64,000 nucleotides of DNA from Halothiobacillus sp. (GTDB taxonomy: Bacteria > Pseudomonadota > Gammaproteobacteria > Halothiobacillales > Halothiobacillaceae), in assembly GCA_020061705.1 (NCBI GenBank), contig JAGUXT010000055.1, positions 124,001 to 188,000 on the forward strand. Direction: 5' to 3'. Both the position numbers and the translations under genes were made by a program. Positions 2,728-18,782 of this stretch are shown piece by piece. Below the pieces are notes generated by a model that was not told where the DNA came from, ran no database searches, and was given only the letters and a program-made list of their open reading frames with translations. Position 1 is the first letter of the stretch, and each line of letters opens with the position of its first letter.

Positions 2728-2800
2728 GAACTGGGGGTCTCCGAATAGTGCAGGAATGATACGATATGTGCCTGAATTTCATCTGTGACACGCTGCACCT

Positions 2801-4066
2801 ATGTTTGGTTTCCTCCGTCGCTTTCGCAAAGAACAGCCTGCACCTCAAATTGAAGCCGTGGCTGAGGCCGTGGTCAAGGAGGATGCTGGATTTATAATTG
2901 AACCTGAAACCGAGACTGGCGCAGGGGATGCTCAGCATGGCAACGAGGGGGTCACGCCGCCTGAGCAGGTGTTTGGGCTTGAGCATGCGACTGCACAGTC
3001 TGAAGTCCTATCTGAGGGGCAATTACCTGTTACAGAGGATGTCGTTGCACCCATGCCTGACTCGCCTCTGGGTGAAACCCATACGCCAATGCCGCAGCCA
3101 GCGACGCGTCCTGGCGCTAAGCCTGTAGAAAAGGCTCCGCTCAAACAAGGTTTGTGGGCAAGTTTGCGTACCCGTCTAGCCCGCACCCGCGAAGGCCTGA
3201 CCGAGGGTTTGGCGAGCTTGGTGCTCGGCAAAAAGCAGATTGACGATGAGTTGCTGGAAGACATTGAAACGCGGCTTTTATTGGCAGACGTAGGTATCGA
3301 CACTACACGTACCTTGATTAATGAATTGACGCAAAAGGTGAAGCGCAAGGATTTGAATTCCCCGGAAGCTCTGCTGGAGGCCTTGTATCAGCACATGGTG
3401 CGTTTGCTTGAGGTTGCCGAGCAACCTTTGCGGGTGTTGAGTGAATCCAAGCCAATGGTTGTGCTGGTGGTGGGCATCAATGGCGCGGGCAAGACCACAT
3501 CCATCGGCAAAATTGGGCAACGCCTGCATGGTGAAGGTCACAATGTCATCCTGGCGGCTGGGGATACTTTTCGTGCGGCGGCGGTCGAGCAGCTGCAAAC
3601 CTGGGGCGAGCGCGTCGGTGTGCCGGTGATTGCCCAAGCTTCGGGGGCGGATTCGGCGGGGGTGATTTTTGATGCGCTGCAAGCGGCACGGGCGCGTGGA
3701 GCCGATGTGTTACTCGCTGATACCGCCGGGCGCTTGCACACGCAGGGCGGCTTGATGGAGGAGCTGAAAAAGGTCAAGCGCGTATTGGCCAAACTTGACC
3801 CCACTGCGCCGCACGAGATTTTGCTGGTGTTGGATGCCAGCATTGGCCAGAACGCACTCAATCAGGCGACGCATTTTCATCAGGCACTCGGTGTGACCGG
3901 GTTGGTGGTGACCAAGCTGGATGGCACGGCCAAGGCAGGGATTTTGTTTGCGATTACGCACAAGCTGGGGCTGCCAATTCGCTATATCGGTGTGGGCGAA
4001 CGTGCCGAGGATTTGCGCCCGTTTAATGCGCGCGAGTTTGTGAATGCAGTGCTCGATCATGAGTAA
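2801..4066 (+). CDS. ftsY: Signal recognition particle receptor FtsY
   Basis: The 421-residue SRP-receptor GTPase delivers ribosome-nascent chain complexes to the translocon at the inner membrane. It has a long acidic N-terminal A domain (about residues 1-110), then the helical N domain and the GTPase G domain. G1 reads GINGAGKTT (about 225-235), G3 is DTAGR (about 306-310) and G4 is TKLDG (about 370-374). The length is within the usual range for proteobacteria. The stop lies 3 bp before ftsE, so ftsY-ftsE-ftsX form one operon, the conserved order. Confidence 0.98.
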   Translation: MFGFLRRFRKEQPAPQIEAVAEAVVKEDAGFIIEPETETGAGDAQHGNEGVTPPEQVFGLEHATAQSEVLSEGQLPVTEDVVAPMPDSPLGETHTPMPQPATRPGAKPVEKAPLKQGLWASLRTRLARTREGLTEGLASLVLGKKQIDDELLEDIETRLLLADVGIDTTRTLINELTQKVKRKDLNSPEALLEALYQHMVRLLEVAEQPLRVLSESKPMVVLVVGINGAGKTTSIGKIGQRLHGEGHNVILAAGDTFRAAAVEQLQTWGERVGVPVIAQASGADSAGVIFDALQAARARGADVLLADTAGRLHTQGGLMEELKKVKRVLAKLDPTAPHEILLVLDASIGQNALNQATHFHQALGVTGLVVTKLDGTAKAGILFAITHKLGLPIRYIGVGERAEDLRPFNAREFVNAVLDHE

Positions 4067-5709: not shown

Positions 5710-5728
5710 GAGCCGTAAAACATCCGCG

Positions 5729-6595
5729 CTAAACCGACATTTGCAGCATCACAATCCCCAGCACCACGATGATTGCCGCAAACAGCCGCAGTCGCCATGC
5801 GGTGCGTTCACCAAAAATAAACAGTGAAATCAGGCTGGCGGCGACGATGCCGAGATTGGTGAGCGAGACGACCAAGGCGGCGGGGAGTTCGCGCATTGCG
5901 CCAACGACGAGGGCGTAGGCCGTGCCAATCGCCAATCCACCGCCTAACATAATCCATTTTCTGGGTGCGCAGGGCGGCACAATGCGCTGTGTGGCGCGGT
6001 AGCGCAGGGTGCTGAGGGTGATAAACGATAGGGCATAACCGACGCTGATAAAACCCATCAGTGTGGCGAAGTTGGGTAAATGGGGCGCGGCGATTTTGTC
6101 GCTGAGCGAGTAAATCGAGGTCATCAGCGCGGCAAGCAGGGCAAAGGGTAGCGCATGACGGGTGTCGCCGCCGCGTGCGCTCCAGCCGAGCAGTGCGAGT
6201 CCGACGCTGCCTATGGCTAAACCGAGCCAGCCTAAATAGTTGGTGCTTACGCCAAAAAACAGGCTTGCCCACAGCGCAATCAGCAGGGGTGAACTGCGCG
6301 CCATGGGGTAGATCAAGGCGACGGGCGCGTAGTGGTAGGCTTTGCGCAGGGCGAGAAAGTAGATCGGATTGGCAATCGAGGTGACCAGTAGGGCGAGCAG
6401 CAGGGCGCTTGTCCAGGTGGTATCCACAACGAGGTGATACAGCGACCACGGCGCAAACAGCACCAAATGCGCACCTAACGCCCACCAGAGCGGGTCGCAT
6501 TCGCGCTTGGCGTGGCGCGCCATGAGATTCCAGCCGACATGCAGGGCGACGGAAAGCGCAATGGCAAGATAAGCATTCAGCGCAAAGTCGCTCAT
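5729..6595 (-). CDS. EamA/DMT-family membrane protein of the phosphonate cluster
   Basis: A 288-residue integral membrane protein with about ten hydrophobic segments in two homologous halves, the layout of EamA (DUF6) drug/metabolite transporters. Proteins of this type occur next to C-P lyase genes and have been classed as phosphonate-utilisation-associated membrane proteins. The solute is unknown. An uptake or export role for a phosphonate or pathway intermediate is inference from position. ATG 6595 overlaps the phnP stop (ATGA), so it is the last gene of the operon. Confidence 0.85.
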   Translation of the reverse strand: MSDFALNAYLAIALSVALHVGWNLMARHAKRECDPLWWALGAHLVLFAPWSLYHLVVDTTWTSALLLALLVTSIANPIYFLALRKAYHYAPVALIYPMARSSPLLIALWASLFFGVSTNYLGWLGLAIGSVGLALLGWSARGGDTRHALPFALLAALMTSIYSLSDKIAAPHLPNFATLMGFISVGYALSFITLSTLRYRATQRIVPPCAPRKWIMLGGGLAIGTAYALVVGAMRELPAALVVSLTNLGIVAASLISLFIFGERTAWRLRLFAAIIVVLGIVMLQMSV

Positions 6596-7365
6596 TGATC
6601 GCCCGGCATGAGGCCGTGCCAAATTTGGCCGTCATGGGCAAGCAAAACACCTAGCGGCAGGGCGTTGGGATGCGCCATAAACCAGGCATCCAGGTCATGG
6701 CTGATATGGGTCAGCCAGGTTTCAAGCGGCGCAATGCTTTTGTGCAGTTGCAGGGCAAGATTGAGGTCATTGTGATTGCGGCGCGGAGTATCGCTGGGCG
6801 GGTGGCTGCAATCCAGCACCATCAAATCGGGACGATGGCTTTGCAGGAAGGCGAGCGTGGTGGCGGGTAAATTCACCGTATCGGTGAGATACGCAATGCG
6901 TGCGCCATCAACTTCGAGAAAGTAGCCGAGCGTGGGGCGCGAGTGAATCAGCGGCAGGGCGGTGATGCGGATGTCGTTGATGACAAGGCACTGGAAGGGC
7001 TCCAGCGTGGAGGAAAAATCCAGAATGCCGTGATGCGTGTGTAAGTCGTCACAGCCCTTGTCATCCACGGGGCCATGCACGGCAAGGCTTGCGCCTTTGC
7101 CCCAGCGTATTTCAAATAAGCCCGCCACATGATCCATGTGGTAGTGGGTGAGCAGCAGGGCATCGAGACTGCCGCTTGGGAAGCGTTGGCCGAAATCCGC
7201 CAGCCCCGCATCCAGCGCAATGCGCGTGCCTGCGTACTCAAGCAGCGCCGAGGCTGGGCGGCGGATGTGATCTTTGAATGTGCGCGCCCGCTGGCAGGCG
7301 GGGCAATCGCAGCCATACAGCGGCACGCCGCCGACGGCGCCGCTGCCTAGCAGGGTGAATTTCAT
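6592..7365 (-). CDS. phnP: Phosphoribosyl 1,2-cyclic phosphate phosphodiesterase PhnP
   Basis: A metallo-beta-lactamase-fold enzyme that opens the cyclic ribose phosphate released by the C-P lyase pathway. The 257-residue protein has the dinuclear metal motif HYHMDH (H74, H76, D78, H79). The Cys-rich segment C19, C21, C24 matches the extra structural zinc site of PhnP. Later HSRP and YLTD segments supply further ligands. ATG 7365 overlaps the phnN stop by 4 bp (ATGA) and is preferred to an in-frame TTG two codons upstream. Confidence 0.95.
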   Translation of the reverse strand: MKFTLLGSGAVGGVPLYGCDCPACQRARTFKDHIRRPASALLEYAGTRIALDAGLADFGQRFPSGSLDALLLTHYHMDHVAGLFEIRWGKGASLAVHGPVDDKGCDDLHTHHGILDFSSTLEPFQCLVINDIRITALPLIHSRPTLGYFLEVDGARIAYLTDTVNLPATTLAFLQSHRPDLMVLDCSHPPSDTPRRNHNDLNLALQLHKSIAPLETWLTHISHDLDAWFMAHPNALPLGVLLAHDGQIWHGLMPGDQ

Positions 7366-7907
7366 GGGCAAAGTACCTCAACAAGTTGTGCGCTGGCTTC
7401 GCTCAATGCACGATCATTGTTAATCACGATTAAACGCGGGTGGTTAAGCTGTTCAAAGGCCAGAGCACCGCTTAGGCGTTCGTCAATTTGCACGGCAGTT
7501 TCTCGCCCGCGTGCTTCCAGCCGCGCGCGTAAAATCTCGGGCGGCACGCGCACCAATACGGGCACGAGGTTATCGGGATAACGCTTTGCCGCTTCCGGCA
7601 GATAGGCGCGGCTGCCGTTCATCACTACGTTCAAGCCCTTGGCTAACCAGTCGTTGATTTCAATGCCGAGGCCATAATCCAGATCGTGACTATGCCAGTG
7701 CATGGCGAATAGGCCAGCTTGCTTGCGCGTGTGGAATTCTTGCGGCGAGAGTTGAATATGGTTCTCGCCTGCCAACTCAACGGGGCGGGTAATGTAGCGA
7801 TGCGCGAAAACCACCGGCTTGGCGGCGAGTTGTTCACGCGCCGCCCGCAGCAGGCTGTCTTTGCCTGCACCGGAGGCGCCGATGATGTAAAACAGGGTTC
7901 CTTGCAT
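7362..7907 (-). CDS. phnN: Ribose 1,5-bisphosphokinase PhnN
   Basis: A guanylate-kinase-like P-loop kinase of 181 residues that makes PRPP from ribose 1,5-bisphosphate, the last step linking phosphonate breakdown to nucleotide synthesis. The P-loop is GASGAGKDS at residues 10-18, and the HRYITRP and GSR segments are typical of PhnN. It overlaps phnP by 4 bp, but about 200 bp holding a hairpin-forming repeat separates it from phnM upstream, so phnN-phnP-EamA may be expressed at a lower level than the rest. Confidence 0.95.
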   Translation of the reverse strand: MQGTLFYIIGASGAGKDSLLRAAREQLAAKPVVFAHRYITRPVELAGENHIQLSPQEFHTRKQAGLFAMHWHSHDLDYGLGIEINDWLAKGLNVVMNGSRAYLPEAAKRYPDNLVPVLVRVPPEILRARLEARGRETAVQIDERLSGALAFEQLNHPRLIVINNDRALSEASAQLVEVLCP

Positions 7908-7928
7908 GATTTAATCACTTATTTAAGC

Positions 7929-8098
7929 AGGACTTACGCAAAACAGTGGTTTTACCCCCTCCCCCTCGATGGGGGAGGGTTGGGGAGAGGGTGGGAAATC
8001 TGGCATAAGCCTATGATTTTGATTAAATTCTCACCCCCTCTCCCCAGCCCTCTCCCGCGAGGGGAGAGGGGGCTTAATCCGTATCCTGCGTATGTCCT
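7929..8098. repeat. GC-rich hairpin element with AGGACTTACGCA-like ends, between phnM and phnN
   Basis: A 170-bp element bounded by AGGACTTACGCA (7929-7940) and TGCGTATGTCCT (8087-8098), an 11-of-12 inverted match. Inside are two G/C hairpins with 9-bp perfect arms (CCCTCCCCC/GGGGGAGGG and CCCTCTCCC/GGGAGAGGG). The two blocks are also inverted copies of each other over about 30 bp. The ends resemble those of two other elements in this window. Transcribed as part of the phn mRNA, it would fold strongly. Confidence 0.8.
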
Positions 8099-8105
8099 AT
8101 TAAGT

Positions 8106-9254
8106 TCACAGGCCGCGCATCATCACCCGTGCCTGACCTTGCACCCAAACACCTTCGATGCGCGCGGTGCTGCTCAAGGTAGACACGGCGATTAAGTCGG
8201 CACGCAAGCCTGTCGCAATGCTACCGCGATTGGGCAGTCCGGCGGCGCGTGCGGGGTTGTGGCTTGCCAGCGCAATGGCTTGCGACAAAGAGATGCCAGC
8301 CAATTCAGGCAATTTAAGCAAAGCAGGCAGCATAGCGGCGGGGGCGTAGTCGGCACACAAGCAATCCGCCACGTTATTCAGCACCGCATCCAAGGCACGC
8401 ATGGAACCCGACTGGCTTTTGCCGCGCAGGATATTCGGCGCGCCAAACAAGGTTGCCATGCCTAAAGCGCGGGCGGCTTGCGCGGTTTCAAGGTTGATGG
8501 GGAACTCGGAGATGGTCGCACCCAAGCCATGCACAAAGGCCGCTTTTTCGGGGGTGTCGTCGTCGTGGCTGGCGACTTGCACGCCGCGAGCGTGCGCGGC
8601 TTCCGCTAATAAACGCATCCGCGCCTCGGAGCCTGCGCCTGCTGCGTGTTTTTCGGCTAATAGTTGATTGATTTCGGCATCGGTCTTTTTGTACGACTTG
8701 GCAAGATACTCGCGGTAGGCGGCATCGGATTTGAATTGGCCTTGACCCGGCGTGTGATCCATAAACGAAAGCAGATGAATTTCATCGTGTTCCAACAGCT
8801 TGAGTAACAGGCTGGGGGCTTCGCTATCGGTGACTTCGTAACGGCAATGCACGCGGTTGTCCATCAACAAGTGCGGGCGCTCTTGATGCACTGCGCGGGC
8901 AATCTGGGCGGCAAAATCGTTGTTGCGCACGCCCAATTCTTCATTAGCAAAAGAGAGCGCATGAAACACGGTGGTGATGCCCGCGAGCGCATTGCGGCGG
9001 TCGGCGTTGTTAATGGCAAAATCGAGCGGGAAATGCACGCCGGGGCGGGGCTCAATTTCTTTTTCCAGCGCATCGCAATGCAAATCAACTAAACCGGGCA
9101 GCAACAGGCGGCCTTGCAGGTCGATTTCTCGCGCATCGCTGGGCGCGGTTTCTGGGTTGATCGCGGCAATTAGGCCGTTTTCAATAATGAGCGCGGCATC
9201 GTCCAAGGTTTCGTTCGGGGTGACGATGCGGGCGTGGGTCAGGTAGGTTTTCAT
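8106..9254 (-). CDS. phnM: Ribosyl-phosphonate triphosphate diphosphatase PhnM
   Basis: An amidohydrolase-superfamily enzyme that removes pyrophosphate from alpha-D-ribose 1-phosphonate 5-triphosphate, giving the substrate for the PhnJ radical step. It has 382 residues. The metal-binding strand carries H59-C-D61 followed by ALEKEIEPRPG, a hallmark of PhnM, and a later ASHDDDTPE segment supplies further ligands. The start is supported by an AAGGAAAA ribosome-binding site. It follows phnL after 27 bp. Confidence 0.96.
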   Translation of the reverse strand: MKTYLTHARIVTPNETLDDAALIIENGLIAAINPETAPSDAREIDLQGRLLLPGLVDLHCDALEKEIEPRPGVHFPLDFAINNADRRNALAGITTVFHALSFANEELGVRNNDFAAQIARAVHQERPHLLMDNRVHCRYEVTDSEAPSLLLKLLEHDEIHLLSFMDHTPGQGQFKSDAAYREYLAKSYKKTDAEINQLLAEKHAAGAGSEARMRLLAEAAHARGVQVASHDDDTPEKAAFVHGLGATISEFPINLETAQAARALGMATLFGAPNILRGKSQSGSMRALDAVLNNVADCLCADYAPAAMLPALLKLPELAGISLSQAIALASHNPARAAGLPNRGSIATGLRADLIAVSTLSSTARIEGVWVQGQARVMMRGL

Positions 9255-9281
9255 GGGGTTTTCCTTAATTTTTAGCGGCGA

Positions 9282-9980
9282 TTAGGCGGCAACAGGCGGC
9301 TTGAGCGTGACGACATCATCGGCAATGCGCTCGACCAATTCAGGGTGGTGGAAAATTGCCAACATGGCGACCCCGTGCGCTTTAAGGCCATCAAGTTGCT
9401 GGATGACGCGGTCGGTGGTCAGCGGGTCAAGCGAGGCGGTGGGTTCATCCAGCAGCAATAAACGCGGGCGTGAAATCAGGCCACGCGCCAAGTTCACGCG
9501 CTGCTTTTCGCCGCCGGAAAACGTGGCAGGCGGTACGCTCCACAGGCGTTCAGGCACATTGAGTGCATCCAGCAAGGCACAGGCTTGGGTGCGCGCCTCA
9601 GATTGATCCATGCCGCGCTTCAATAAAGGCTCGGCCACGACATCTTGCGCGCCACGACGCGGCAGGCAGTATAAAAACTGGGTTACAAAGCCGATTTCTT
9701 CGCGGCGTAAGTCCAGAATTTGATGCTCTGAGGCCTGCGCCAAATCAATCTGCGTGCCCGCCGCAGTGCGAAACACAATGCGCCCCGCGCTAGGCAAATA
9801 GCTGCGATACACGCCTTTGAGCACCGAGGATTTACCCGTACCGGTCGGGCCAATCAGCGCGGTGAGGCGGCCTGGAAAGACTTTGAAATTCACATCGTTC
9901 GAGGATGGAATGATTGTGCCTTGCGCGTGGTTGATAAAGGTTTTATTGAAACCTTCGACTTCTAAAATAGGCTGTAACAT
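9282..9980 (-). CDS. phnL: C-P lyase ATP-binding protein PhnL
   Basis: An ABC-type ATPase of 232 residues that belongs to the C-P lyase machinery, not to the PhnCDE transporter. Walker A GPTGTGKSS is at residues 44-52, and the signature FSGGEKQR and Walker B LLLLDEPT are intact. ATG 9980 was preferred; an in-frame TTG five codons upstream is possible. An inverted repeat CGGCTT/AAGCCG lies in the 24-bp gap at the end of phnK. Confidence 0.95.
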   Translation of the reverse strand: MLQPILEVEGFNKTFINHAQGTIIPSSNDVNFKVFPGRLTALIGPTGTGKSSVLKGVYRSYLPSAGRIVFRTAAGTQIDLAQASEHQILDLRREEIGFVTQFLYCLPRRGAQDVVAEPLLKRGMDQSEARTQACALLDALNVPERLWSVPPATFSGGEKQRVNLARGLISRPRLLLLDEPTASLDPLTTDRVIQQLDGLKAHGVAMLAIFHHPELVERIADDVVTLKPPVAA

Positions 9981-10004
9981 GTTGTTATTACTCAATAGTT
10001 CGGC

Positions 10005-10835
10005 TTATAAAGCCGAGGCCACAAGGCGTTGCGTGTACGGATGTTGCGGGTCTTCCAGAATCTGATCGGTCAAGCCGGATTCAATCACGCGGCCATATTT
10101 CATCACCAACACGCGGCTGGTAAGTAAACGCACCACGCCTAAATCGTGGGTGACGACGATCATGGCGGTATTGAGTTCGCGTTGAATTTCCAAGATTAAA
10201 TCGAGAATTGCGGCTTGCACGGATAAATCCAGACCGGTGGTGACTTCATCCAAATACAACAACGGCGGTTGGGTGGCGAGCGCCTTGGCAATCTGCACGC
10301 GCTGCTGCATTCCGCCGGAGAATGCGCCGGGTTTTTCGTCCATGCGCTCAATCATCACTTCGGTACGGCGCAGCAATTCGCGTGCGCGCTCGCGGATTTG
10401 GCCGTAATGCGCCAAGCCGCTCATCAGCAAGCGTTCGGCGATATTGCCGCCGGAGCTAATGCCAAAATTCAGGCCAAGATTGGGGTTTTGATACACCATG
10501 CCGTAGCGATGGTTGCGCAGCCAGCGGCGTTCGGCGGCATTTAGCTTAAACAAATCCCATTGCCGGTCGTCGTCGAAAAAAATCGCCTCGCCGTGGGTGG
10601 GCATTTGGTCGAAATACAGGTTTTTGACGGCGGTGGACTTGCCCGAACCGGACTCGCCCATAATGCCCAAAATCTCGCCCTTGTAGAGATCAAACGAGAG
10701 ATCATGCGCCGCCACCACCGAGCCGCAATGCGGGCAGATATTGGTGTCGAACTCGGGGCCGGTGCTCTCAAAACACTGGGGGCAGCCTTTGCCAAAAATT
10801 TTGGAGAGGCCGCGTACTTCTAAAATTTTATCCAT
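10005..10835 (-). CDS. phnK: C-P lyase ATP-binding protein PhnK, with a Cys4 insertion
   Basis: An ABC-type ATPase that docks on the PhnGHIJ core. The 276-residue protein is somewhat longer than the 252-residue E. coli form. The difference lies near the N-terminus, where C18-P-Q-C21 and C34-P-H-C37 form two CxxC pairs like a zinc ribbon, directly before the Walker A segment GESGSGKST (60-68). The signature SGGMQQR and Walker B LLYLDEVT are present. ATG 10835 has an AAGGAG ribosome-binding site 5 bp upstream. The gap to phnJ is 636 bp and holds the opposing parD-parE pair, so phnK is split from the upstream part of the operon. Confidence 0.95.
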   Translation of the reverse strand: MDKILEVRGLSKIFGKGCPQCFESTGPEFDTNICPHCGSVVAAHDLSFDLYKGEILGIMGESGSGKSTAVKNLYFDQMPTHGEAIFFDDDRQWDLFKLNAAERRWLRNHRYGMVYQNPNLGLNFGISSGGNIAERLLMSGLAHYGQIRERARELLRRTEVMIERMDEKPGAFSGGMQQRVQIAKALATQPPLLYLDEVTTGLDLSVQAAILDLILEIQRELNTAMIVVTHDLGVVRLLTSRVLVMKYGRVIESGLTDQILEDPQHPYTQRLVASAL

Positions 10836-10847
10836 GCTGGTTCTCCT

Positions 10848-10862
10848 TGGCAAAGTTTGCCA
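10848..10862. promoter_or_regulatory. Perfect inverted repeat upstream of parD, abutting the phnK ribosome-binding site
   Basis: TGGCAAA-g-TTTGCCA is a perfect 7-bp inverted repeat, 34 bp before the parD start. ParD-type antitoxins usually bind such repeats at their own promoter, and a weak TTTGCC-N17-TATTTT promoter for parDE begins within it (10856-10884). On the other strand it overlaps the first base of the phnK AAGGAG site. The operator role is inference. Confidence 0.45.
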
Positions 10863-10896
10863 TAATCGAGAGTGTGTATATTTTTGGAGTCAAACC

Positions 10897-11133
10897 ATGG
10901 CCACGATGAACATTTCCTTGAACGATGCTTTGCGTGATTTTGTGCAAGAGCGCGTTGAAACATCCGGATTTAGTAATGCCAGCGACTATGTGCGCAGCCT
11001 GATTCGTGCCGATAAAGAGCGGGCGGCCGAGGCGCGGCTGGAGGCTTTGTTGCTTGCGGGTTTGGCCTCGGGCGAAGCTCAACCGGTGGATGCGGCTTTT
11101 TGGCAAAAACTGCAGGCGCGGGCAGGGCTGTAA
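10897..11133 (+). CDS. parD: ParD-family antitoxin
   Basis: A 78-residue type II antitoxin. The N-terminal half (about residues 4-40, with SNASDYVRSLIR) matches the ribbon-helix-helix DNA-binding domain of the ParD/CC2985 family; the C-terminal part should wrap the toxin. ATG 10897 has a GGAG site 8 bp upstream; longer in-frame starts would run into phnK. The stop touches the parE start with no gap, as expected for a TA pair. It runs against the surrounding phn operon. Confidence 0.92.
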   Translation: MATMNISLNDALRDFVQERVETSGFSNASDYVRSLIRADKERAAEARLEALLLAGLASGEAQPVDAAFWQKLQARAGL

Positions 11134-11475
11134 ATGAGCGTGCCGATCACCATCCGCCCGCAAGCCGAGGCCGATATTGTGGGTATTGTGGATGGCTTGA
11201 AGGCGGAAAGCCCCAAGCTTGCGCAGGCATTTGTGCGCCAGTTGCAGCACAGTTTCACTTTGCTGAGTGATTTTCCGCTCATGGGGGCTTTGCGCAGCTA
11301 TCAGCATCCTAGGTTGCATGGGCTGCGCATGGTGCCGCTCAAGCAATTCGAGCGCTATGTGCTGTTCTACCTGCCGCATCCGCACGAAATTCAAGTCATC
11401 CGCGTGCTGCACGGGGCGCGTGATTTGCCCAGCTTGTTTGCAGAGGATGCGCAACGCATTGAGGGCGAGAACTAG
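11134..11475 (+). CDS. parE: RelE/ParE-family toxin
   Basis: A 113-residue toxin of the ParE/RelE fold. ParE toxins poison DNA gyrase; RelE relatives cut mRNA. The N-terminus PITIRPQAEADIVGI, the central LHGLRMVPLKQFERYVLFY and the C-terminal IQVIRVLHGARD are typical of the ParE branch. It starts directly after parD. The last codons overlap the end of phnJ on the other strand: the four bases CTAG at 11472-11475 hold both stop codons. The gyrase target is family knowledge, not shown here. Confidence 0.92.
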   Translation: MSVPITIRPQAEADIVGIVDGLKAESPKLAQAFVRQLQHSFTLLSDFPLMGALRSYQHPRLHGLRMVPLKQFERYVLFYLPHPHEIQVIRVLHGARDLPSLFAEDAQRIEGEN

Positions 11476-12338
11476 CATGGCTTGCCCTCCGCATGAGCCA
11501 TGCGGCTATCGCAATAATCGCTATCGGAGCATTGATAGACTTTTTCACCGCTTTTGGCATCAATAAATTCATCCAAAAAGCTGTCGTCTGCGCCGCAGCG
11601 TTCACATACGCGGCGTTGACCTGTCGCGGGATCATTGAAGTTTTCCACGCGGAACACGACATCCTCAAAGGCCAGCGGTTCGGCAACGGTGTACGGGGGC
11701 ACGGCGTAGATTTTTTTCTCGCGGCCTGCGCCGAGCAGAATCAGTGCGGGGCTTTGGTGCATTTTGGGCACGTCCCAGCGCGGAATCGGTGAGGGGTCGA
11801 TCACATAATGCCCGTTGATGCGCGTGGGGTAGCGGTGCGAGAGGGTAATTTCGTCGAATTTCACGATGTCTTCGTACAGCTTGACCAAGAGGCGCGAATA
11901 ATCGGCCTCGCCGTGCATGATTTTGCGCTTCTCTTCGGAAGACTCGACCACGACCAGCGCGTCGGGGTAGGGGACTTGCAGGGCAATAATCTGATCTTCA
12001 CGCAGCGGTATTTCAGGAATGCGGTGGCGCGACTGAATCAGGTCGGCCTCCGTCGTGTGCGTGGTGGTGTGGATACCGGGGCAGACTTTTTCGATAAAGT
12101 GGCGCAGGTTGACCGCGTTCACTGAATCGTCCGAGCCTTGGTCGATGACTTTGAGGGTTTCGCCTTCGCCAATCAGGGAGAGGGTTAGTTGCAGGCCGCC
12201 CGTACCAAAACCGCGCCCCATCGGCATTTCGCGGCTGGCATAGGGAACTTGATAGCCCGGAATGGCAATCGCTTTAAGAATGCTACGGCGCACTTCTTTT
12301 TTGGCGTATTCATCTAAAAACGCAAAGTTGTAGCTCAT
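11472..12338 (-). CDS. phnJ: Alpha-D-ribose 1-methylphosphonate 5-phosphate C-P lyase PhnJ
   Basis: The radical-SAM-type enzyme that breaks the carbon-phosphorus bond. The 288-residue protein has C245-x2-C248-x21-C270-x5-C276, the same spacing as the E. coli cysteines 241, 244, 266 and 272 that carry the [4Fe-4S] cluster and the catalytic thiol. G28, in IPGYQVPY, matches the Gly32 that forms the glycyl radical. ATG 12338 overlaps the phnI stop (ATGA). The enzyme should be active. Its 3' end is antisense to the end of parE. Confidence 0.97.
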   Translation of the reverse strand: MSYNFAFLDEYAKKEVRRSILKAIAIPGYQVPYASREMPMGRGFGTGGLQLTLSLIGEGETLKVIDQGSDDSVNAVNLRHFIEKVCPGIHTTTHTTEADLIQSRHRIPEIPLREDQIIALQVPYPDALVVVESSEEKRKIMHGEADYSRLLVKLYEDIVKFDEITLSHRYPTRINGHYVIDPSPIPRWDVPKMHQSPALILLGAGREKKIYAVPPYTVAEPLAFEDVVFRVENFNDPATGQRRVCERCGADDSFLDEFIDAKSGEKVYQCSDSDYCDSRMAHAEGKPC

Positions 12339-13450
12339 GATGCGTCTCCTTGCGTGGGCGCTTTGTTTTGGGTGGCACGCAGGCGATCCATGTCGGATTG
12401 GAAGGTGACGTAATGCGGCATTTTGTAGTGGTTGGCAAAGCCCATGGACTCGATGCCATCGACGTGCAACAGCACAAATTCGGGGTCTTCGGAAGGATTC
12501 GATGCGCCGTCTTTCATGCCTTTTTGCAACGAGCGATCCAAAATCGCCATGCTGATCGCCTTGGTTTCGTTGTGCCCTAGGCACGCGCCGTAACCCAAGG
12601 AGAAGGTTGGCAAGCCGCCATCATCTTCATCGGCTTCGTACATGGCGACGACTTCGCATTCGGTCATGAGTACTTCGCCGGCTTCAATCAGCTCGCCGGT
12701 TTCCGGGTGCGGCAACATGATGGGCACATAACCCACGCGCACTTCGGCAATGGTCGGGTGAACATCGCCATAGCCGCGCATGTTGGAGTAGGCAATGGCG
12801 AGCAGGGAGCCAGTTTCGGCGCGTGCCATGGTGGCGAGCGCGGCAGAGCGGGACACGGGGAAAATCAGCGGTTCACGAGTGATGTCGAAGGCGACTTGTT
12901 CGCGGCCTGCGGGGGTGGGGGCGAGTAAGCCCTCTTCACGCAGGTTATCGAGCACTTTGGGGAAGCTGTCGGGAATATCCGCAATATCAATGTCCTTAAA
13001 AAAGCGCGCGGCGGTGGCTTTGAAGGCCTCGGGCGATTCATCGACTAGCTCCATACGCATCAAACGCAGGGCGTAATCAAAAGTCGCGCCCAAGCGCTGG
13101 CCACCGGGAATGTCCTTGAATGAGGACGAAATGCGCCGCGTCACCCGCATCAAGCGGGTATCGATGAGCTGAGGCCCCGGCACACGCGGACGGGTGGAGC
13201 GGTAGGCTCGCAGGGCAAACGCGGCTTCTAGCGTGTCGCCTTGCATTTGCTTGATCGCTAAGGACGCGAGCTTAGGATGGTACAGGCCGCCTTCGGATAG
13301 GACGCGCCCGTGCAGGTAGCGCAGTTGGTTTTCAATCGCCGACAATGCGAGCGATTCGCCCGCTTCGCCTTCCGCGCAGCGCAGCGCTTCAAGCACTTGA
13401 TCGGCTCCGGCAATGGCTTGACCACCGCCTTTAATGGCAACGTAACCCAT
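12335..13450 (-). CDS. phnI: C-P lyase core subunit PhnI
   Basis: A 371-residue component of the PhnG2H2I2J2 core. With PhnG, H and L it replaces the adenine of ATP by the phosphonate to form ribose 1-phosphonate 5-triphosphate. The N-terminal segment MGYVAIKGGGQAI and the MLPHPETGELIEAGEVLMTECEV region are strongly conserved in PhnI. ATG 13450 shares one base with the phnH stop, and its own stop overlaps phnJ. Confidence 0.97.
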   Translation of the reverse strand: MGYVAIKGGGQAIAGADQVLEALRCAEGEAGESLALSAIENQLRYLHGRVLSEGGLYHPKLASLAIKQMQGDTLEAAFALRAYRSTRPRVPGPQLIDTRLMRVTRRISSSFKDIPGGQRLGATFDYALRLMRMELVDESPEAFKATAARFFKDIDIADIPDSFPKVLDNLREEGLLAPTPAGREQVAFDITREPLIFPVSRSAALATMARAETGSLLAIAYSNMRGYGDVHPTIAEVRVGYVPIMLPHPETGELIEAGEVLMTECEVVAMYEADEDDGGLPTFSLGYGACLGHNETKAISMAILDRSLQKGMKDGASNPSEDPEFVLLHVDGIESMGFANHYKMPHYVTFQSDMDRLRATQNKAPTQGDAS

Positions 13451-14004
13451 TAAATCACCTCAATTTGTGTGGTGCGCGGCAGGGCAACGATGCCATTACT
13501 GCCCGCAAGAAAAATATCCACGCCCATAGGGAAGGCGGTGTTCCAGTTTTGGCGCAAGTTCAGCCATTCGCGTGCCAAACCTTCAACATGCAGGCGTTGC
13601 TCGGTTTGAATGCCGGGGCCTGTCAGCTTGAGTTCAAGGCCATCATTCGCCCCAATGTGGCCAACGATGAGCACGAGGCTGGCTGATTTTTCCGGCTCTT
13701 CGAGCGTGCCAATGCGCGGTTTAATCGAGTGGACTTTTTCACCGCCAAGCAGGATGAAATCGGCGTGTTCCGCATCGACGGGGCACGCTTCTAAAAATGG
13801 CCAATCGGCTTTTGCGCACAGCAGGTTTTGCGGGTCAGCAAGGCTCACTTCGGCATCAAGCAGCGCGGCCAGAAGCGCACGATAAGTGGGCAAACCCTCG
13901 ACACTTGTGGGCAAAGCCACACAGCGACCGGGAAACGATTGGGCTTGGAGTGCAGCGCGAAACACCGCTTGTTGCACAGGGGCATTAAAAATAGGTTCAA
14001 GCAT
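13450..14004 (-). CDS. phnH: C-P lyase core subunit PhnH
   Basis: A 184-residue core subunit related in fold to PLP-dependent transferases but without cofactor binding. It is recognised by the FRALLQAQSFPG-type N-terminal region and the LRQNWNTAFPMGVDIFLA C-terminus, the common PhnH ending (xNxxFPxGVDxFL). ATG 14004 overlaps phnG by 8 bp and was chosen over upstream in-frame codons that lie inside phnG. Confidence 0.94.
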   Translation of the reverse strand: MLEPIFNAPVQQAVFRAALQAQSFPGRCVALPTSVEGLPTYRALLAALLDAEVSLADPQNLLCAKADWPFLEACPVDAEHADFILLGGEKVHSIKPRIGTLEEPEKSASLVLIVGHIGANDGLELKLTGPGIQTEQRLHVEGLAREWLNLRQNWNTAFPMGVDIFLAGSNGIVALPRTTQIEVI

Positions 14005-14476
14005 CGTCGTCGTCCTCATCGTCGGTTGCGCCCAACAGGCTGAAGTCCACCGTTGTGGCGGCGAGCATGGCTTTGCGCTCAAAGTCGATGCGTGCAACTG
14101 CCGTTGCGCCTTGCTGCATTAAGTCGAGCAAGGGCGCGGCTTCCGGCCACTCGGCGGCAATCAGTGCATCGGCAATGGCGAGGGTTTCGACCAGCGCCAT
14201 GTCATCCTCCATGACCCAAGCCGCGCCACGGGCTTCACGGTCATCTTGGGCGGTGACGGCAAGATGCACTTTTGCGAGTGGGATTTCGCCTAGGTTAAAG
14301 GCATCGGCAAATGCGCCATCGCGTAGCGGTAGTAAGGCGAGTCCGTTTTGTGGCAGGGCGAGATAGCGGGTTTGCAGTGTGCTTTTAAGCGCTGTGCCTG
14401 TGGCAAGCAGTGCTGCACGGGGCGCAGCCATGAGTAGGCGCATCCACTGCCCGCGTGGGTAGGTTGCTGTATTCAA
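13997..14476 (-). CDS. phnG: C-P lyase core subunit PhnG
   Basis: A 159-residue core subunit, identified by YPRGQWMRLLMAAP near the N-terminus (PhnG proteins begin with RQxWMxxLA) and by position. I place the start at TTG 14476: it overlaps the phnE2 stop (TTGA) and has GAGGA 8 bp upstream. An ATG at 14443 would cut the conserved N-terminus. The C-terminus ends in an acidic run of Asp and Glu. An unusual start codon in the middle of a coupled operon may lower PhnG synthesis. Confidence 0.88.
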   Translation of the reverse strand: MNTATYPRGQWMRLLMAAPRAALLATGTALKSTLQTRYLALPQNGLALLPLRDGAFADAFNLGEIPLAKVHLAVTAQDDREARGAAWVMEDDMALVETLAIADALIAAEWPEAAPLLDLMQQGATAVARIDFERKAMLAATTVDFSLLGATDDEDDDDA

Positions 14477-15276
14477 TGCAGTTTTCCTCGAACAAAGCTG
14501 GAAAGACGATCCAGCAACATGATGGTGACAATCAAAATAATCAGCAGCGCGGCGGATTGGTCGTACTCGAACATGCGCAGGGTGTCGTAAAGCGCAATGC
14601 CGATACCGCCTGCGCCGACAAGGCCGAGTACCGCGCCGGTACGAATGTTGCGGTCGAGGATATACAAGGTATAGCCACTCATTTCGCGCAAAATAGACGG
14701 CCAACCGGCATACATCATTTTTTGCGAGAAGCCCGCACCGACGGCATCCAGCGCTTCATATCGGCCTTTGTCCACGCGCTCTAAACTTTCGGCAAAAAAT
14801 TTACCCAAGAATCCTGCGGTGTGTACTCCAAGCGCCAGCGCCCCCGGCAGTGGTCCCAGACCAAAACTGGCCACAAACACCAGCGCAAGCAGCACATCCG
14901 GCATGGCACGCATAAAGTTGAGGGCTTCACGTGCCAGGTTGTACGTCCAGGCATTCGGAGATAGGTTGCGCGCGGCAAACGGGGCAATGAAAAAGGCGAC
15001 GACAAAGGCGAAAATCGTGCCCCAAAAGCCCATGGCGATGGTTTCCAGCATCAGCTTCACATACGACGGTGCTTGGCTAAAATCCGGATGACCGTAGCGG
15101 CTGAAGTATTCGACGATGTCGTCCCAGCCATAAATCAGGGTTTTGGGCGAAATGTCGAGCTGTACACCCGCCAACCAAACTACGCCTATCAGTGCCGTTG
15201 CCCAAATCGGCATTAAATTGCGTGGCCTAGGTGGCAAAGGCGGCAAGCTTTGCGCTGCAAGCGGTTTAACTGCCAT
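14473..15276 (-). CDS. phnE: Phosphonate ABC transporter permease PhnE, second copy
   Basis: A 267-residue inner-membrane permease with about six membrane segments and the permease loop motif (EALDAVGAG ... GYTLYILDRNIRTGAVLGLVGAGGIG) that contacts the PhnC ATPase. ATG 15276 has a GGAGGG site. It overlaps the first phnE by 11 bp. Two different permease genes suggest a heterodimeric channel; E. coli has one phnE. The two differ clearly in sequence. Confidence 0.94.
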   Translation of the reverse strand: MAVKPLAAQSLPPLPPRPRNLMPIWATALIGVVWLAGVQLDISPKTLIYGWDDIVEYFSRYGHPDFSQAPSYVKLMLETIAMGFWGTIFAFVVAFFIAPFAARNLSPNAWTYNLAREALNFMRAMPDVLLALVFVASFGLGPLPGALALGVHTAGFLGKFFAESLERVDKGRYEALDAVGAGFSQKMMYAGWPSILREMSGYTLYILDRNIRTGAVLGLVGAGGIGIALYDTLRMFEYDQSAALLIILIVTIMLLDRLSSFVRGKLH

Positions 15277-16090
15277 GACGATACCCTCCGCCAGAAATGA
15301 CCCGATTACGCAGTGAATCCGACAGGCGATCGACAATCGTCACCGCGAGATAAATGGCGAGCAAAATCACAATCAGGCGCTCAAATTCAAAGTAGCGAAT
15401 GCTGTTAATCAAGTCGAAGCCAATGCCGCCCGCACCGACAATGCCCAGCACCGTGGCGGCGCGGATGTTGTGGTCAAGCACATAGAGCAACGTGCCCACA
15501 AAGTCCGGCAACGCCTGCGGCAACATGGCGAAGTAGCGCACTTGAAACCAGCCTGCGCCGGTGGCGCGCAGACCTTCAATCGGCCCTATTTCGACCACTT
15601 CAATCGACTCGGCAAAGAACTTGGCCATAAAACCAATACTCACCACCGCAATCGCCAAAATACCCGGCAAAGGACCAAGCCCAATGGCAGAAACGAACAC
15701 CAGCGCCCAAACCAGTTCCGGCAGGGCGCGGAAAAACGAGAGCAGATCGCGGGTGATTTGCCCGACGATTGGGTGCGGCGTGGCGTTGCGTGCGGCCAAC
15801 ACGCCTATTGGCAAGCTGATAATGGCGGCAAGTACCGTGGCAATCAGCGCCATTTCCAGCGTTTCGAGCATTTTTTCAAACAGCTGCGGCAAATAATCCA
15901 AGGGCGGCGGCTTTTCAAACATGCGCAGGATGAACATGAATAAATCATCGAGCTTGCTAATTAAAAACAGCAGGTTGAATTCCACTAAGGGCGCCGAAAT
16001 CACGAGCAGAAAAATGACGCTCCCAAGCGTAATCCACATTGCGCGCGGCGGCAGACCGTCAGGCGTAGGCCAGCGTAGTTGCGGCAACAT
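15266..16090 (-). CDS. phnE: Phosphonate ABC transporter permease PhnE, first copy
   Basis: A 274-residue permease of the PhnCDE importer with the conserved EGLRATGAGWFQ and LDHNIRAATVLGIVGAGGIG segments. ATG 16090 has a strong GAGGAGG site but lies inside phnC, giving a 32-bp overlap. An internal ATG at 16039 would remove the overlap but loses the ribosome-binding site. It works with the second PhnE, PhnC and PhnD. Confidence 0.93.
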   Translation of the reverse strand: MLPQLRWPTPDGLPPRAMWITLGSVIFLLVISAPLVEFNLLFLISKLDDLFMFILRMFEKPPPLDYLPQLFEKMLETLEMALIATVLAAIISLPIGVLAARNATPHPIVGQITRDLLSFFRALPELVWALVFVSAIGLGPLPGILAIAVVSIGFMAKFFAESIEVVEIGPIEGLRATGAGWFQVRYFAMLPQALPDFVGTLLYVLDHNIRAATVLGIVGAGGIGFDLINSIRYFEFERLIVILLAIYLAVTIVDRLSDSLRNRVISGGGYRHGS

Positions 16091-16844
16091 GGTTGGCCTC
16101 CTCAATGACTTCCGGGCGGCGATACAGGGCTTCAATGACCTCATCGGTGAGGGCGGCGGGCGGGCCGTCAAAAATCACCTGCCCGGCGTTGATACCAATC
16201 ACCCGATCCGCATACTGGCGGGTGTATTCGACTTGGTGCAGGTTGGCGACCACCGCGATGTTGTCGTTCTTGCAGATGCTTTTAAGCAAATCCAGCACTT
16301 CGGCGCTGGTGAGCGGGTCGAGGCTGGCGACCGGTTCATCGGCCAAAATAATGCTGGGTTTTTGTGCCAGCGCACGCGCAATGCCTACCCGTTGCTGTTG
16401 ACCGCCGGAGAGTTGATCGGCGCGAATCCAAGCCTTTTCGCTCAAGTCCACACGGGCGAGGGCTTCGTGTGCAATTTCAAAATCCTCGGCGCGAAACAAG
16501 TGCAACATGCTGCCGAGCCACGAGCGATAGGCCAGCCTGCCGGTGAGCACATTGGTCATGACATTCAAACGACCGACAAGGTTGAATTGCTGAAACACCA
16601 TGCCAACGGTGCGCCGCACGGTGCGCAGGGTTTTGCGGGTCAGCAGGGTGTTGTGGACATGCACTGTGCCGGTGGTGGGGGTTTCAAGGCCATTCATCAT
16701 GCGCAGCAAGGTGGATTTCCCCGCGCCGGAAGGGCCGAGAATGACGGTAAAACTACCGGGTTCGATCGTCAGACTAATCCCTTTCACGGCCGATGTGCCG
16801 TTGGGATAAGTTTTGACGACCTGATTCATAACAATGGCGGACAT
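16059..16844 (-). CDS. phnC: Phosphonate ABC transporter ATP-binding protein PhnC
   Basis: A 261-residue ATPase that drives phosphonate uptake. Walker A GPSGAGKST, signature LSGGQQQRVGIARAL and Walker B IILADEPVASLDP are intact. The DEPVASLD form is typical of PhnC. ATG 16844 has GGAG 8 bp upstream; longer in-frame codons belong to the non-coding gap after phnD. That gap of 132 bp is the largest in the transport part of the operon. Confidence 0.96.
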   Translation of the reverse strand: MSAIVMNQVVKTYPNGTSAVKGISLTIEPGSFTVILGPSGAGKSTLLRMMNGLETPTTGTVHVHNTLLTRKTLRTVRRTVGMVFQQFNLVGRLNVMTNVLTGRLAYRSWLGSMLHLFRAEDFEIAHEALARVDLSEKAWIRADQLSGGQQQRVGIARALAQKPSIILADEPVASLDPLTSAEVLDLLKSICKNDNIAVVANLHQVEYTRQYADRVIGINAGQVIFDGPPAALTDEVIEALYRRPEVIEEANHVAATTLAYA

Positions 16845-16976
16845 AAGTGTCTCCAATTCAATGAGCGTTAAAAGCCTGCAACGCAAACACCGCAAATGCT
16901 TGAGTTGCAGGCCTTGCAATCTTGGGCAATCGGCGAAAACCTGTGTTCGAGTTTTCGCCGTTAGATCGTTAAAGAA

Positions 16977-17843
16977 TTACTTCAACATTTCTTCTTTGGA
17001 CAATTTCAGCTCTTTAATCATGTCGCGCACGATTTGATAATCGGCGGCATCGACGGCGGCGTAGTGTGACAACTCACCGTAGCCGGTCACTTGAATCTCG
17101 TTGTGCGCATTCAAAATGGCATCACGGATTTTCTTTTGCATTTCAGGGTTCAAATCGCCACGGTAGACCAGCGGCGAACCAGGCAAGGGCGTGCTTTCGG
17201 CAATGATGCAGCTCACTTTCGGGTCAATTTGGCCTTTTTTGACCATTTTTTCGTAAGTGATGTCGTTGTCCGCAGCGGCTGTGACGGTGCCATTGGCGAC
17301 CGCAAGTTCCGCAGCATCATGGCTGCCGGCATAAGTGAATTTGCCGAAATAATCTTTCGGCATCACGCCAAATTGCTTGTAAATCATGTAGGTGGGCATC
17401 AGGCCGCCAGAGGTTGAGGCGGGGTTCACAAACGCCACATCTTTGCCTTTTAGATCAGCCAAGTTTTTAATGCCTGAATCGCATTTGGCCACGAAAATGG
17501 ATTTGTAGGTGTGGCTGTCTGCGCCTTTACGAATACCGACGGCGAACGGAACCGCACCGGCCTCTTGCTGTGCCAATACATACGAGAGTGGGCCGAACCA
17601 AGCAATGTCGATGCGCTTTTTACGCATGGCTTCAATCACGCCGGTGTAATCGGTGGCGGTGTACACCTTGACGGGCTCGCCGAGTTTTTTCTCAAGATAA
17701 ACACGCATCGGCTCGAACTTTTTAATCATTTCCTCGGTGTTTTCCGCAGGAATAAGCCCCATGGTGATTTCAGCATGGGCGATAGGAGCGGCGATGCTCA
17801 GGGTCATCAGGGAGGCCAGCAGGGTTTTTTTCAGCAAAGACAT
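16977..17843 (-). CDS. phnD: Phosphonate ABC transporter substrate-binding protein PhnD
   Basis: The periplasmic receptor for phosphonates, 288 residues, with a clear signal peptide (positive MSLLKK start, hydrophobic stretch, AHA cleavage site near residue 24). The mature part has the PhnD/SsuA-like features TATDYTGVIEAMRKKRIDIAWFGPLSYVLA and FVNPASTSGGLMPTYM. A GAGGA site precedes ATG 17843. First transport gene after the regulator phnF. Confidence 0.96.
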   Translation of the reverse strand: MSLLKKTLLASLMTLSIAAPIAHAEITMGLIPAENTEEMIKKFEPMRVYLEKKLGEPVKVYTATDYTGVIEAMRKKRIDIAWFGPLSYVLAQQEAGAVPFAVGIRKGADSHTYKSIFVAKCDSGIKNLADLKGKDVAFVNPASTSGGLMPTYMIYKQFGVMPKDYFGKFTYAGSHDAAELAVANGTVTAAADNDITYEKMVKKGQIDPKVSCIIAESTPLPGSPLVYRGDLNPEMQKKIRDAILNAHNEIQVTGYGELSHYAAVDAADYQIVRDMIKELKLSKEEMLK

Positions 17844-17900
17844 GGAGCAGTTCCTCAGGTTTTGAGCGGGGTTAAAAAACAAGTTCAGGTTGCAGGGCGG

Positions 17901-18626
17901 TTACACCATGACCGACAGCTGCACGCGGTCGGCACGGAATCGGGTTAAGGCATACTCGACGGGCTCGCCGGTCGCCTCGGAAACATTCAAACTTTTGACG
18001 CGCAACACAGGGCTGTTCTGTGGCATGGATAAAAGTTGCGCATCGTCACCTTGGGGTAGGGTGCTGGTAATCAGGCTTTCGATGCGGCGCAGGTGGAGAT
18101 TGAGATGCTCGGCCAAAAAGCTGTGCAGCGAGCCGCCGCTGTAATGACTCAGCGGCTCATCAAACTCCTTGGCTGGAAAGAAGTGCGACACCAAACAAAA
18201 AGGCAGGCCATCGGCGCGGCGGCGGGTTTCAATAAACACCACATCCTCGTTCTCGCGCAGATTCAAACGCCGCGCCACGCCTGCGCTGGCGGGGGCGATG
18301 ATATGGTTCAGAATCTCGGTGTCGGTGCTCAAGCCGCTACCTTCGAGCTGTTCGGTAAAGCGGGTTTTGGCGTTGATCGCGTAATCAATCATGCCCAGCA
18401 CGAACGTGCCGCTGCCATGACGGCGCTCGACCAGCCCTGCATCAACCAATAGGTCAACCGCATGACGGATGGTGTGGCGGTTGACACCAAAGCGTGCAGC
18501 CAGAACCATCTCGGAAGGCAAGGCATCGCCGATTTTGTAGCGTTGTTTAATTTCGCCTTCCAGTGATTTGGCAATTTGGCGATAGACATGACCCGTTCGG
18601 TCACGGTTAATGGCGTGGAAGCTCAT
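17901..18626 (-). CDS. phnF: GntR/HutC-family regulator PhnF
   Basis: A 241-residue transcription factor with an N-terminal winged HTH (about residues 12-77; GDALPSEMVLAARFGVNRHTIRHAVDLLVDAGLVERRHGSGTFV) and a C-terminal UTRA ligand-binding domain, the HutC branch. Members of this group next to phn genes act as repressors, sensing a phosphonate-pathway compound or phosphate. It is the first gene of the operon and divergent from rpoH. No ribosome-binding site is visible before ATG 18626, and a palindrome lies 11 bp upstream, so it may be leaderless or weakly translated and autoregulated. Confidence 0.93.
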   Translation of the reverse strand: MSFHAINRDRTGHVYRQIAKSLEGEIKQRYKIGDALPSEMVLAARFGVNRHTIRHAVDLLVDAGLVERRHGSGTFVLGMIDYAINAKTRFTEQLEGSGLSTDTEILNHIIAPASAGVARRLNLRENEDVVFIETRRRADGLPFCLVSHFFPAKEFDEPLSHYSGGSLHSFLAEHLNLHLRRIESLITSTLPQGDDAQLLSMPQNSPVLRVKSLNVSEATGEPVEYALTRFRADRVQLSVMV

Positions 18627-18636
18627 GGAGATTTGT

Positions 18637-18648
18637 ATAGATGTCTAT
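18637..18648. promoter_or_regulatory. Palindrome ahead of phnF, candidate PhnF operator
   Basis: ATAGA-TG-TCTAT is a perfect inverted repeat inside TTGTATAGATGTCTATTTC, 11 bp upstream of the phnF start. TATAGAC-type half sites are known for PhnF/HutC-type regulators, so this is a reasonable operator candidate. No binding evidence is available from sequence alone. Confidence 0.45.
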
Positions 18649-18752
18649 TTCGATGCACCTATTTTCCATAAATAAATCTAATGGTGTGTGAAGTTTTGGT
18701 GAATTTTTTATGAATGCAGATAAATACTGGGTTCGCGGAACAAAAGACGAAT

Positions 18753-18782
18753 TTGGCACTCTGAGGCTTGGAGTGCTAAATT
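18753..18782 (+). promoter_or_regulatory. CIRCE element overlapping the rpoH promoter
   Basis: TTGGCACTC-N9-GAGTGCTAA at 18753-18779 differs by one base from the HrcA operator consensus TTAGCACTC-N9-GAGTGCTAA. The same bases form a sigma-70-like promoter, TTGGCA (18753) - 18 bp - TAAATT (18777-18782), so a bound repressor would cover both promoter boxes. The rpoH start follows 32 bp later. Confidence 0.82.

What the first reader, a model, noticed from the sequence alone, without database searches (positions are those of the whole stretch)
10835..11475. ParDE toxin-antitoxin pair embedded antisense inside the C-P lyase operon
Between phnJ and phnK, where other operons have almost no gap, there is a complete parD-parE pair reading the opposite way. 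The phn mRNA would run through it as antisense, and parDE transcripts would converge on phnJ. Phosphonate use and the toxin could thus be linked: high phn transcription (phosphate starvation) may silence or destabilise the antitoxin message. Both parts are intact and the phn genes on either side look functional.
Basis: partly seen in the sequence, partly recalled or inferred. Interest (0 to 1): 0.78.

Follow-up and report, generated by a model that had tools for sequence, protein, structure and literature searches.

The report
Toxin-antitoxin pair inserted in phosphonate operon
An ordinary, complete ParD-ParE toxin-antitoxin gene pair has inserted backwards between two genes of a phosphonate-degradation operon; the position is unusual and its ends look like an insertion scar, but nothing shows that the toxin is tied to phosphonate use.

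Summary
An intact parD (10897-11133) and parE (11134-11475), both on +, fill the gap between phnJ and phnK, which read on -. The parE and phnJ stop codons overlap. Of 119 other phnJ-phnK junctions, 113 have no room for a gene and none carries parDE. The pair is a single-copy insertion, found only in this genome.

The pair keeps its family's upstream operator (TTGGCAAAGTTTGCCA; homologs CTTGCCAAATTTTGCCAA), so it very likely carries its own ParD-repressed promoter. The insert is bounded by a 14-bp inverted repeat with 13 matches, readable as a 9-bp terminal repeat plus a duplicated CATG. Shuffles reach this in 2 of 100,000. Both phn genes keep a start signal. The phn strand across the insert is one 216-codon frame that starts at a Shine-Dalgarno/ATG over the phnJ stop and ends over the phnK start, so phn mRNA could stay translated. 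That open frame is common in homologous parDE pairs and is not evidence of selection.

Best reading: an autonomous, probably selfish, TA module tolerated in an accessory phn cluster between ftsX and rpoH. The proposed phosphate-starvation switch is unsupported: no clear Pho box, no conservation, and antisense RNA would hit both genes.

The parts
10897..11133 (+). parD, RHH-type antitoxin, 78 aa
   Evidence: PF03693 22.4 bits and TIGR02606 54.9 bits, both over cut-off; ParD chains in PDB, best 7ycs_D E=5e-4
11134..11475 (+). parE, ParE/RelE-superfamily toxin, 113 aa; TAG stop overlaps the phnJ stop
   Evidence: PF05016 49.7 bits; PDB 6x0a E=7.6e-6, 5ceg E=6e-4
10847..10864 (+). ParD operator-like element TTGGCAAAGTTTGCCATA with perfect palindrome TGGCAAA-G-TTTGCCA at 10848-10862
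   Evidence: same position and near-identical sequence (CTTGCCAAATTTTGCCAA) upstream of parD in seven homologous pairs (L093, L143, L144, L146, L147, L148, L150)
10886..10889 (+). parD Shine-Dalgarno (GGAG, 7 nt before ATG)
   Evidence: sequence
10832..10845 (+). left arm of the boundary inverted repeat, CCATGCTGGTTCTC; includes the phnK start codon
   Evidence: the repeat finder I3; shuffle P 2e-5; only two exact copies of CATGCTRGTTCTC in the genome, these two
11467..11480 (-). right arm of the boundary inverted repeat, CCATGCTAGTTCTC on the - strand; includes the parE and phnJ stops
10833..10836 (.). CATG copy 1 (candidate 4-bp target-site duplication)
   Evidence: sequence; inference
11476..11479 (.). 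CATG copy 2 (candidate 4-bp target-site duplication)
   Evidence: sequence; inference
10828..11478 (-). 216-codon open frame antisense to parDE; ATG over the phnJ stop (ATGCTAG), TAA over the phnK start (ATGGATAA); Shine-Dalgarno-like GGAGGG at 11485-11490
   Evidence: the ORF listing; codon statistics; homolog comparison
11472..12338 (-). phnJ, intact
   Evidence: PF06007 460.9 bits
10005..10835 (-). phnK, intact, with Shine-Dalgarno AAGGAG (complement of 10843-10848) lying in the insert-side sequence
   Evidence: PF00005 and TIGR02323; relatives about 70-83% identical
5729..18626 (-). accessory cluster phnF-D-C-E-E-G-H-I-J-[parDE]-K-L-M-N-P plus an EamA transporter, between ftsX and the rpoH-like sigma gene
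   Evidence: empty ftsX-rpoH site in congener G003

Best explanation
An autonomous type II ParDE module with its own ParD-repressed promoter inserted backwards at the phnJ-phnK junction of an accessory C-P lyase cluster. Shown: intact genes, the family operator upstream of parD, uniqueness of the insertion among sampled junctions, and an inverted repeat at exactly both ends. Inferred: ParD neutralises ParE (a gyrase-type poison by family) and with it represses the operator; the insertion persists because parDE is self-maintaining and because the junction was left with a start signal on each side, so phn transcripts can still be translated through to phnK-P. Any antisense effect between the phn and parDE transcripts is a by-product, not a purpose-built switch.
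For: Both proteins exceed curated family cut-offs and have solved ParE/ParD relatives. The operator motif is conserved in seven homologous pairs that lie elsewhere in other genomes, so the unit carries its own control. parDE was found at none of 119 other phnJ-phnK junctions (parDE searched by tblastn in 89; of the 30 others only one has room, and its ORFs show no parDE). The insert has no other copy in its genome and no close DNA relative in the 19 related genomes searched. The 14-bp end repeat is far above chance (2 in 100,000 shuffles; 1e-4 for the 9-bp part alone). The review PMC7167474 describes the same phenomenon: TA pairs, including a parDE, sit between genes of working operons without functional link, and REP sequences occupy such sites too.
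Against: No expression or toxicity data. Closest ParE relatives are only 30-42% identical, so the donor is unknown. No congener with a readable phnJ-phnK junction exists in the collection: phn contigs of G002 and G004 break inside the cluster, so age and exact empty site cannot be fixed. GC content (0.556 vs 0.561) gives no sign of recent arrival.
Confidence: 0.75

Rival explanations
1. One reading: under phosphate starvation strong phn transcription through parDE silences its mRNA, labile ParD decays and ParE slows growth.
For: phnJ and phnK flank parDE on the opposite strand with no strong terminator between them, so read-through would be antisense to parDE. Antisense RNAs that act on type II pairs are reported (aMEF on mazEF, PMC8749433; relBE in M. 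tuberculosis, PMC9325379, abstract).
Against: One genome only. No Pho box above 9/14 by phnF or phnD (weak). Antisense would lower ParE as well as ParD. ParD autorepression would buffer mild interference. aMEF stimulates rather than silences.
Confidence: 0.07
2. Addiction of the island: parDE inside the phn cluster penalises loss of the cluster, which is accessory at the ftsX-rpoH site.
For: The cluster is absent at the ftsX-rpoH site of congener G003 but its two edges are at that site in G004, so presence varies. TA pairs stabilise superintegron arrays and the SXT element (PMC7167474).
Against: Other phn clusters lack parDE and persist. One case cannot show an effect on retention. A deletion that spares parDE would not be penalised.
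Confidence: 0.2
3. ParD (or ParD-ParE) bound at 10847-10864 is a roadblock to phn transcription just upstream of phnK, so toxin-antitoxin balance tunes phnK-phnP.
For: The operator abuts the phnK Shine-Dalgarno (sequence) and is the conserved family element.
Against: The position follows directly from where the module landed; no data on occupancy or polarity.
Confidence: 0.06
4. The segment is invertible: recombination between the 14-bp arms flips parDE relative to the phn operon.
For: Inverted repeat with 13/14 matches flanking a 621-bp segment.
Against: No recombinase looked for or seen next to it; no reads to test flipped orientation; other copies of the repeat are absent.
Confidence: 0.03
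5. Silent or decaying passenger: the module is not expressed or its toxin is inactive.
For: The promoter region has diverged from relatives: 34 bp between operator and ATG against about 20, and the spacing to a -10 is less clear.
Against: Both frames intact, a Shine-Dalgarno and the operator are kept, and promoter-like hexamers are found.
Confidence: 0.12

Closest known systems
ParDE type II toxin-antitoxin modules (ParD TIGR02606/PF03693 with ParE PF05016)
   Same: gene order antitoxin-toxin, RHH antitoxin, ParE toxin, upstream operator conserved with homologs
   Different: sequence only 30-42% (ParE) and 45-55% (ParD) identical to the closest pairs found; location inside a catabolic operon on the opposite strand
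TA pairs inserted between operon genes in enterobacteria (mazEF in relA-mazG, yafNO in dinB-yafP, ccd between folA and apaH, parDE in relA-mazG of Salmonella; PMC7167474)
   Same: insertion at an intercistronic site of a working operon with no functional link, patchy presence
   Different: antisense to the operon here, where the relA-mazEFG and dinB-yafNOP insertions are described as part of the larger operon; clear inverted repeat at both ends
Antisense RNA control of type II TA pairs (aMEF on mazEF, PMC8749433)
   Same: a transcript antisense to a type II pair is possible
   Different: here the antisense would be the mRNA of a metabolic operon; not shown to be made or to act

Membership tests
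ParDE type II TA module | ParD-family RHH antitoxin over curated cut-off | tested here: met
   PF03693 22.4 bits (cut-off 21), TIGR02606 54.9 bits (46.2)
ParDE type II TA module | ParE toxin over curated cut-off | tested here: met
   PF05016 49.7 bits (cut-off 23)
ParDE type II TA module | antitoxin gene directly upstream of toxin gene, one transcript | tested here: met
   TAA-ATG adjacency at 11131-11136; co-transcription itself not testable
ParDE type II TA module | operator upstream for autoregulation | tested here: met
   motif shared with seven homologous pairs; binding not testable
ParDE type II TA module | toxicity neutralised by antitoxin, gyrase target | not testable with these tools
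   needs expression assays
TA pair inserted in an operon's intercistronic site | relatives have an undisturbed junction | tested here: met
   84 of 89 and 29 of 30 junctions undisturbed; not available for congeners
Terminal-repeat mobile unit | terminal inverted repeats and target-site duplication | tested here: inconclusive
   9-bp repeat (8/9) plus CATG on both sides, but no exact empty site; the start codon ATG itself constrains part of the duplication
Terminal-repeat mobile unit | other copies bounded by the same repeats | tested here: not met
   no second pair in the genome; the four other ParE-family loci lack paired GTTCTC/GAGAAC ends
Phosphate-controlled antisense switch | Pho box at the phn promoter | tested here: inconclusive
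   best 9/14 near phnF/phnD; phn may be PhnF-controlled
Phosphate-controlled antisense switch | conservation of the arrangement | tested here: not met
   one genome only

The most novel reading that the evidence does not exclude
The parDE pair is a minimal mobile unit with its own 9-bp terminal inverted repeats that inserted at a CATG and duplicated it, giving a footprint for how toxin-antitoxin modules integrate, a step described as unelucidated in PMC7167474. A base-paired stem of the two ends in phn mRNA (pair probability about 0.64 in the naked RNA) would also bring the phnJ stop next to the phnK start.
Probability: 0.15. Interest if true: 0.55.

Novelty: new member of a known kind. Interest (0 to 1): 0.32.

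Why it matters
It adds an antisense-oriented case to the list of toxin-antitoxin pairs lodged in working operons, with an unusually clean boundary repeat that can be used to ask how such modules move. If expression data showed interference in either direction it would also be a natural test of how an operon tolerates an opposing toxin gene.

Tried and rejected
Selection for the 216-codon antisense frame: the chance of no TTA/CTA/TCA codon in parD and parE at this genome's codon usage is about 0.02 (0.198 x 0.113), but five of nine homologous pairs from other genomes also have none in the aligned part, so the open frame is not evidence of selection. Close viral source: none found. Plasmid relatives: only below 40% identity in the listed rows. 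Second genomic copy: none. Same end repeats around homologous parDE pairs: none. parDE in other phnJ-phnK gaps: none; a few gaps hold other things. Literature linking TA pairs to C-P lyase genes: six papers hold all terms, none about this from titles and abstract starts. Congener junctions: not readable because phn contigs of G002 and G004 break inside the cluster.

Full report
What is there. The window holds a complete C-P lyase cluster on the - strand, phnF-D-C-E-E-G-H-I-J-K-L-M-N-P plus an EamA transporter (5729-18626). Between phnJ (11472-12338) and phnK (10005-10835) lies a parD-parE pair on the + strand: parD 10897-11133 and parE 11134-11475. Both exceed curated cut-offs (ParD_antitoxin 22.4 bits and TIGR02606 54.9 bits; ParE_toxin 49.7 bits) and have solved relatives (6x0a, 5ceg for ParE; 7ycs for ParD). 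parE and phnJ end tail to tail with overlapping stops in CTAG.

Is the gap unusual? Yes. I took 80 phnJ loci from GTDB genomes and 9 from other genomes of the class. In 84 of these 89 the phnJ stop lies within about 10 nt of the phnK start or overlaps it, and no parD or parE match occurs in any. The five larger gaps are four cyanobacterial loci (34, 151, 265 and 792 nt) and one class genome (124 nt). In 30 further loci drawn across the phylum, 29 have no room for a gene. The exception, L202, has a short gene on the opposite strand between phnJ and phnK, amid repeated sequence. The antisense parDE is therefore an insertion private to this genome in the data at hand.

The cluster itself is accessory. 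In the closest congener (G003, FtsX 91% identical) ftsX and the rpoH-like gene are directly adjacent; the 13-kb phn segment is absent. In G004 (FtsX 85%) both edges of the cluster sit at the same site, but the contigs end inside the cluster; G002 has a phn fragment at another place that also ends inside. No congener shows a readable phnJ-phnK junction, which limits dating.

Anatomy of the insert. Upstream of parD is TTGGCAAAGTTTGCCATA (10847-10864), with a perfect 7-1-7 palindrome. Seven homologous parDE pairs from other genomes carry CTTGCCAAATTTTGCCAA or a close variant at the corresponding place. This is almost certainly the ParD operator/promoter region of the family, so the module brings its own control. 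At the outer ends a 14-bp inverted repeat with one mismatch (CCATGCTGGTTCTC / CCATGCTAGTTCTC) coincides with both borders. Shuffles of the ends reach that length in 2 of 100,000. Leaving CATG aside, 8 of 9 matches have chance 1e-4. It reads naturally as 9-bp terminal repeats CTRGTTCTC inside a duplicated CATG, but one cannot separate this from other histories: the phnK ATG is functionally required, the phnK-side sequence GGAGAACCAGCATG also resembles the native phnJ tail/phnK start of several other proteobacteria (GGAGAACCGGCATG in L026, L042, L044, L046), and no second copy exists in the genome.

Effect on phn. On the phn strand, phnJ ends GCGGAGGGCAAGCCATGCTAG: a Shine-Dalgarno and an ATG over the stop. 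From that ATG a single frame of 216 codons runs through the whole parDE antisense and ends with TAA inside ATGGATAA of phnK. phnK has its own AAGGAG. So a ribosome leaving phnJ could keep the mRNA covered as far as phnK, which would avoid polarity (inference). The open frame is not proof of selection: about 0.02 by this genome's codon usage, but five of nine homologous pairs elsewhere show the same. In naked RNA the two end repeats pair with probability about 0.64, which would bring the phnJ stop next to the phnK start; untested.

How it most likely works. As a normal autoregulated ParDE pair that maintains itself and is tolerated at this junction. The review PMC7167474 describes TA pairs between genes of intact operons (relA-mazG, dinB-yafP, folA-apaH; a parDE in relA-mazG of Salmonella), argues that insertion was independent of the operon's function, and says the mechanism of integration remains unelucidated. 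This locus fits that picture; its clean end repeat is the one feature that bears on the open question.

Antisense read-through is likely if phn is transcribed, since there is no strong terminator, but silencing would strike parD and parE alike, no strong Pho box was found (weak evidence), and the arrangement is not conserved. Antisense control of a type II pair is known but in the case whose abstract I read it stimulates expression (PMC8749433). I give that model 7%. Stabilisation of the accessory phn cluster by addiction is more plausible (20%) but rests on one genome.

Verdict. Real, unusual in place, ordinary in kind.

Noticed in passing
window 7946-8073: REP-like palindromic repeat between phnN and phnM; dozens of related copies in congener G003 and several in G002 and G004.
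   Followed up: partly
window 5710-18770: The whole phn cluster sits between ftsX and an rpoH-like gene; that site is empty in G003, while G004 has both cluster edges there with contigs broken inside.
   Followed up: partly
L202, about 2362-3150: A locus from another class of the phylum has a small gene on the opposite strand between phnJ and phnK (looks like a DUF559/Vsr-type nuclease by eye), amid repeated CRHLPHKGGD-coding palindromes: a second case of an antisense insertion at this junction.
   Followed up: partly
L073 3852-4650: Nostoc sp. WHI has a same-strand gene between phnJ and phnK that looks by eye like an S51 peptidase.
   Followed up: no
L130 (G002 C127): Congener G002 carries a phn fragment from phnF to phnH at a different locus, ending at the contig end.
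   Followed up: no
G000 C44, C9, C34 and C8:41384-41626: Four other ParE-family toxins in the same genome, each next to a small antitoxin-like ORF by eye, none with the end repeat seen here.
   Followed up: partly
window 14473-16171: Two adjacent phnE-type permease genes, both over the PhnE cut-off.
   Followed up: no
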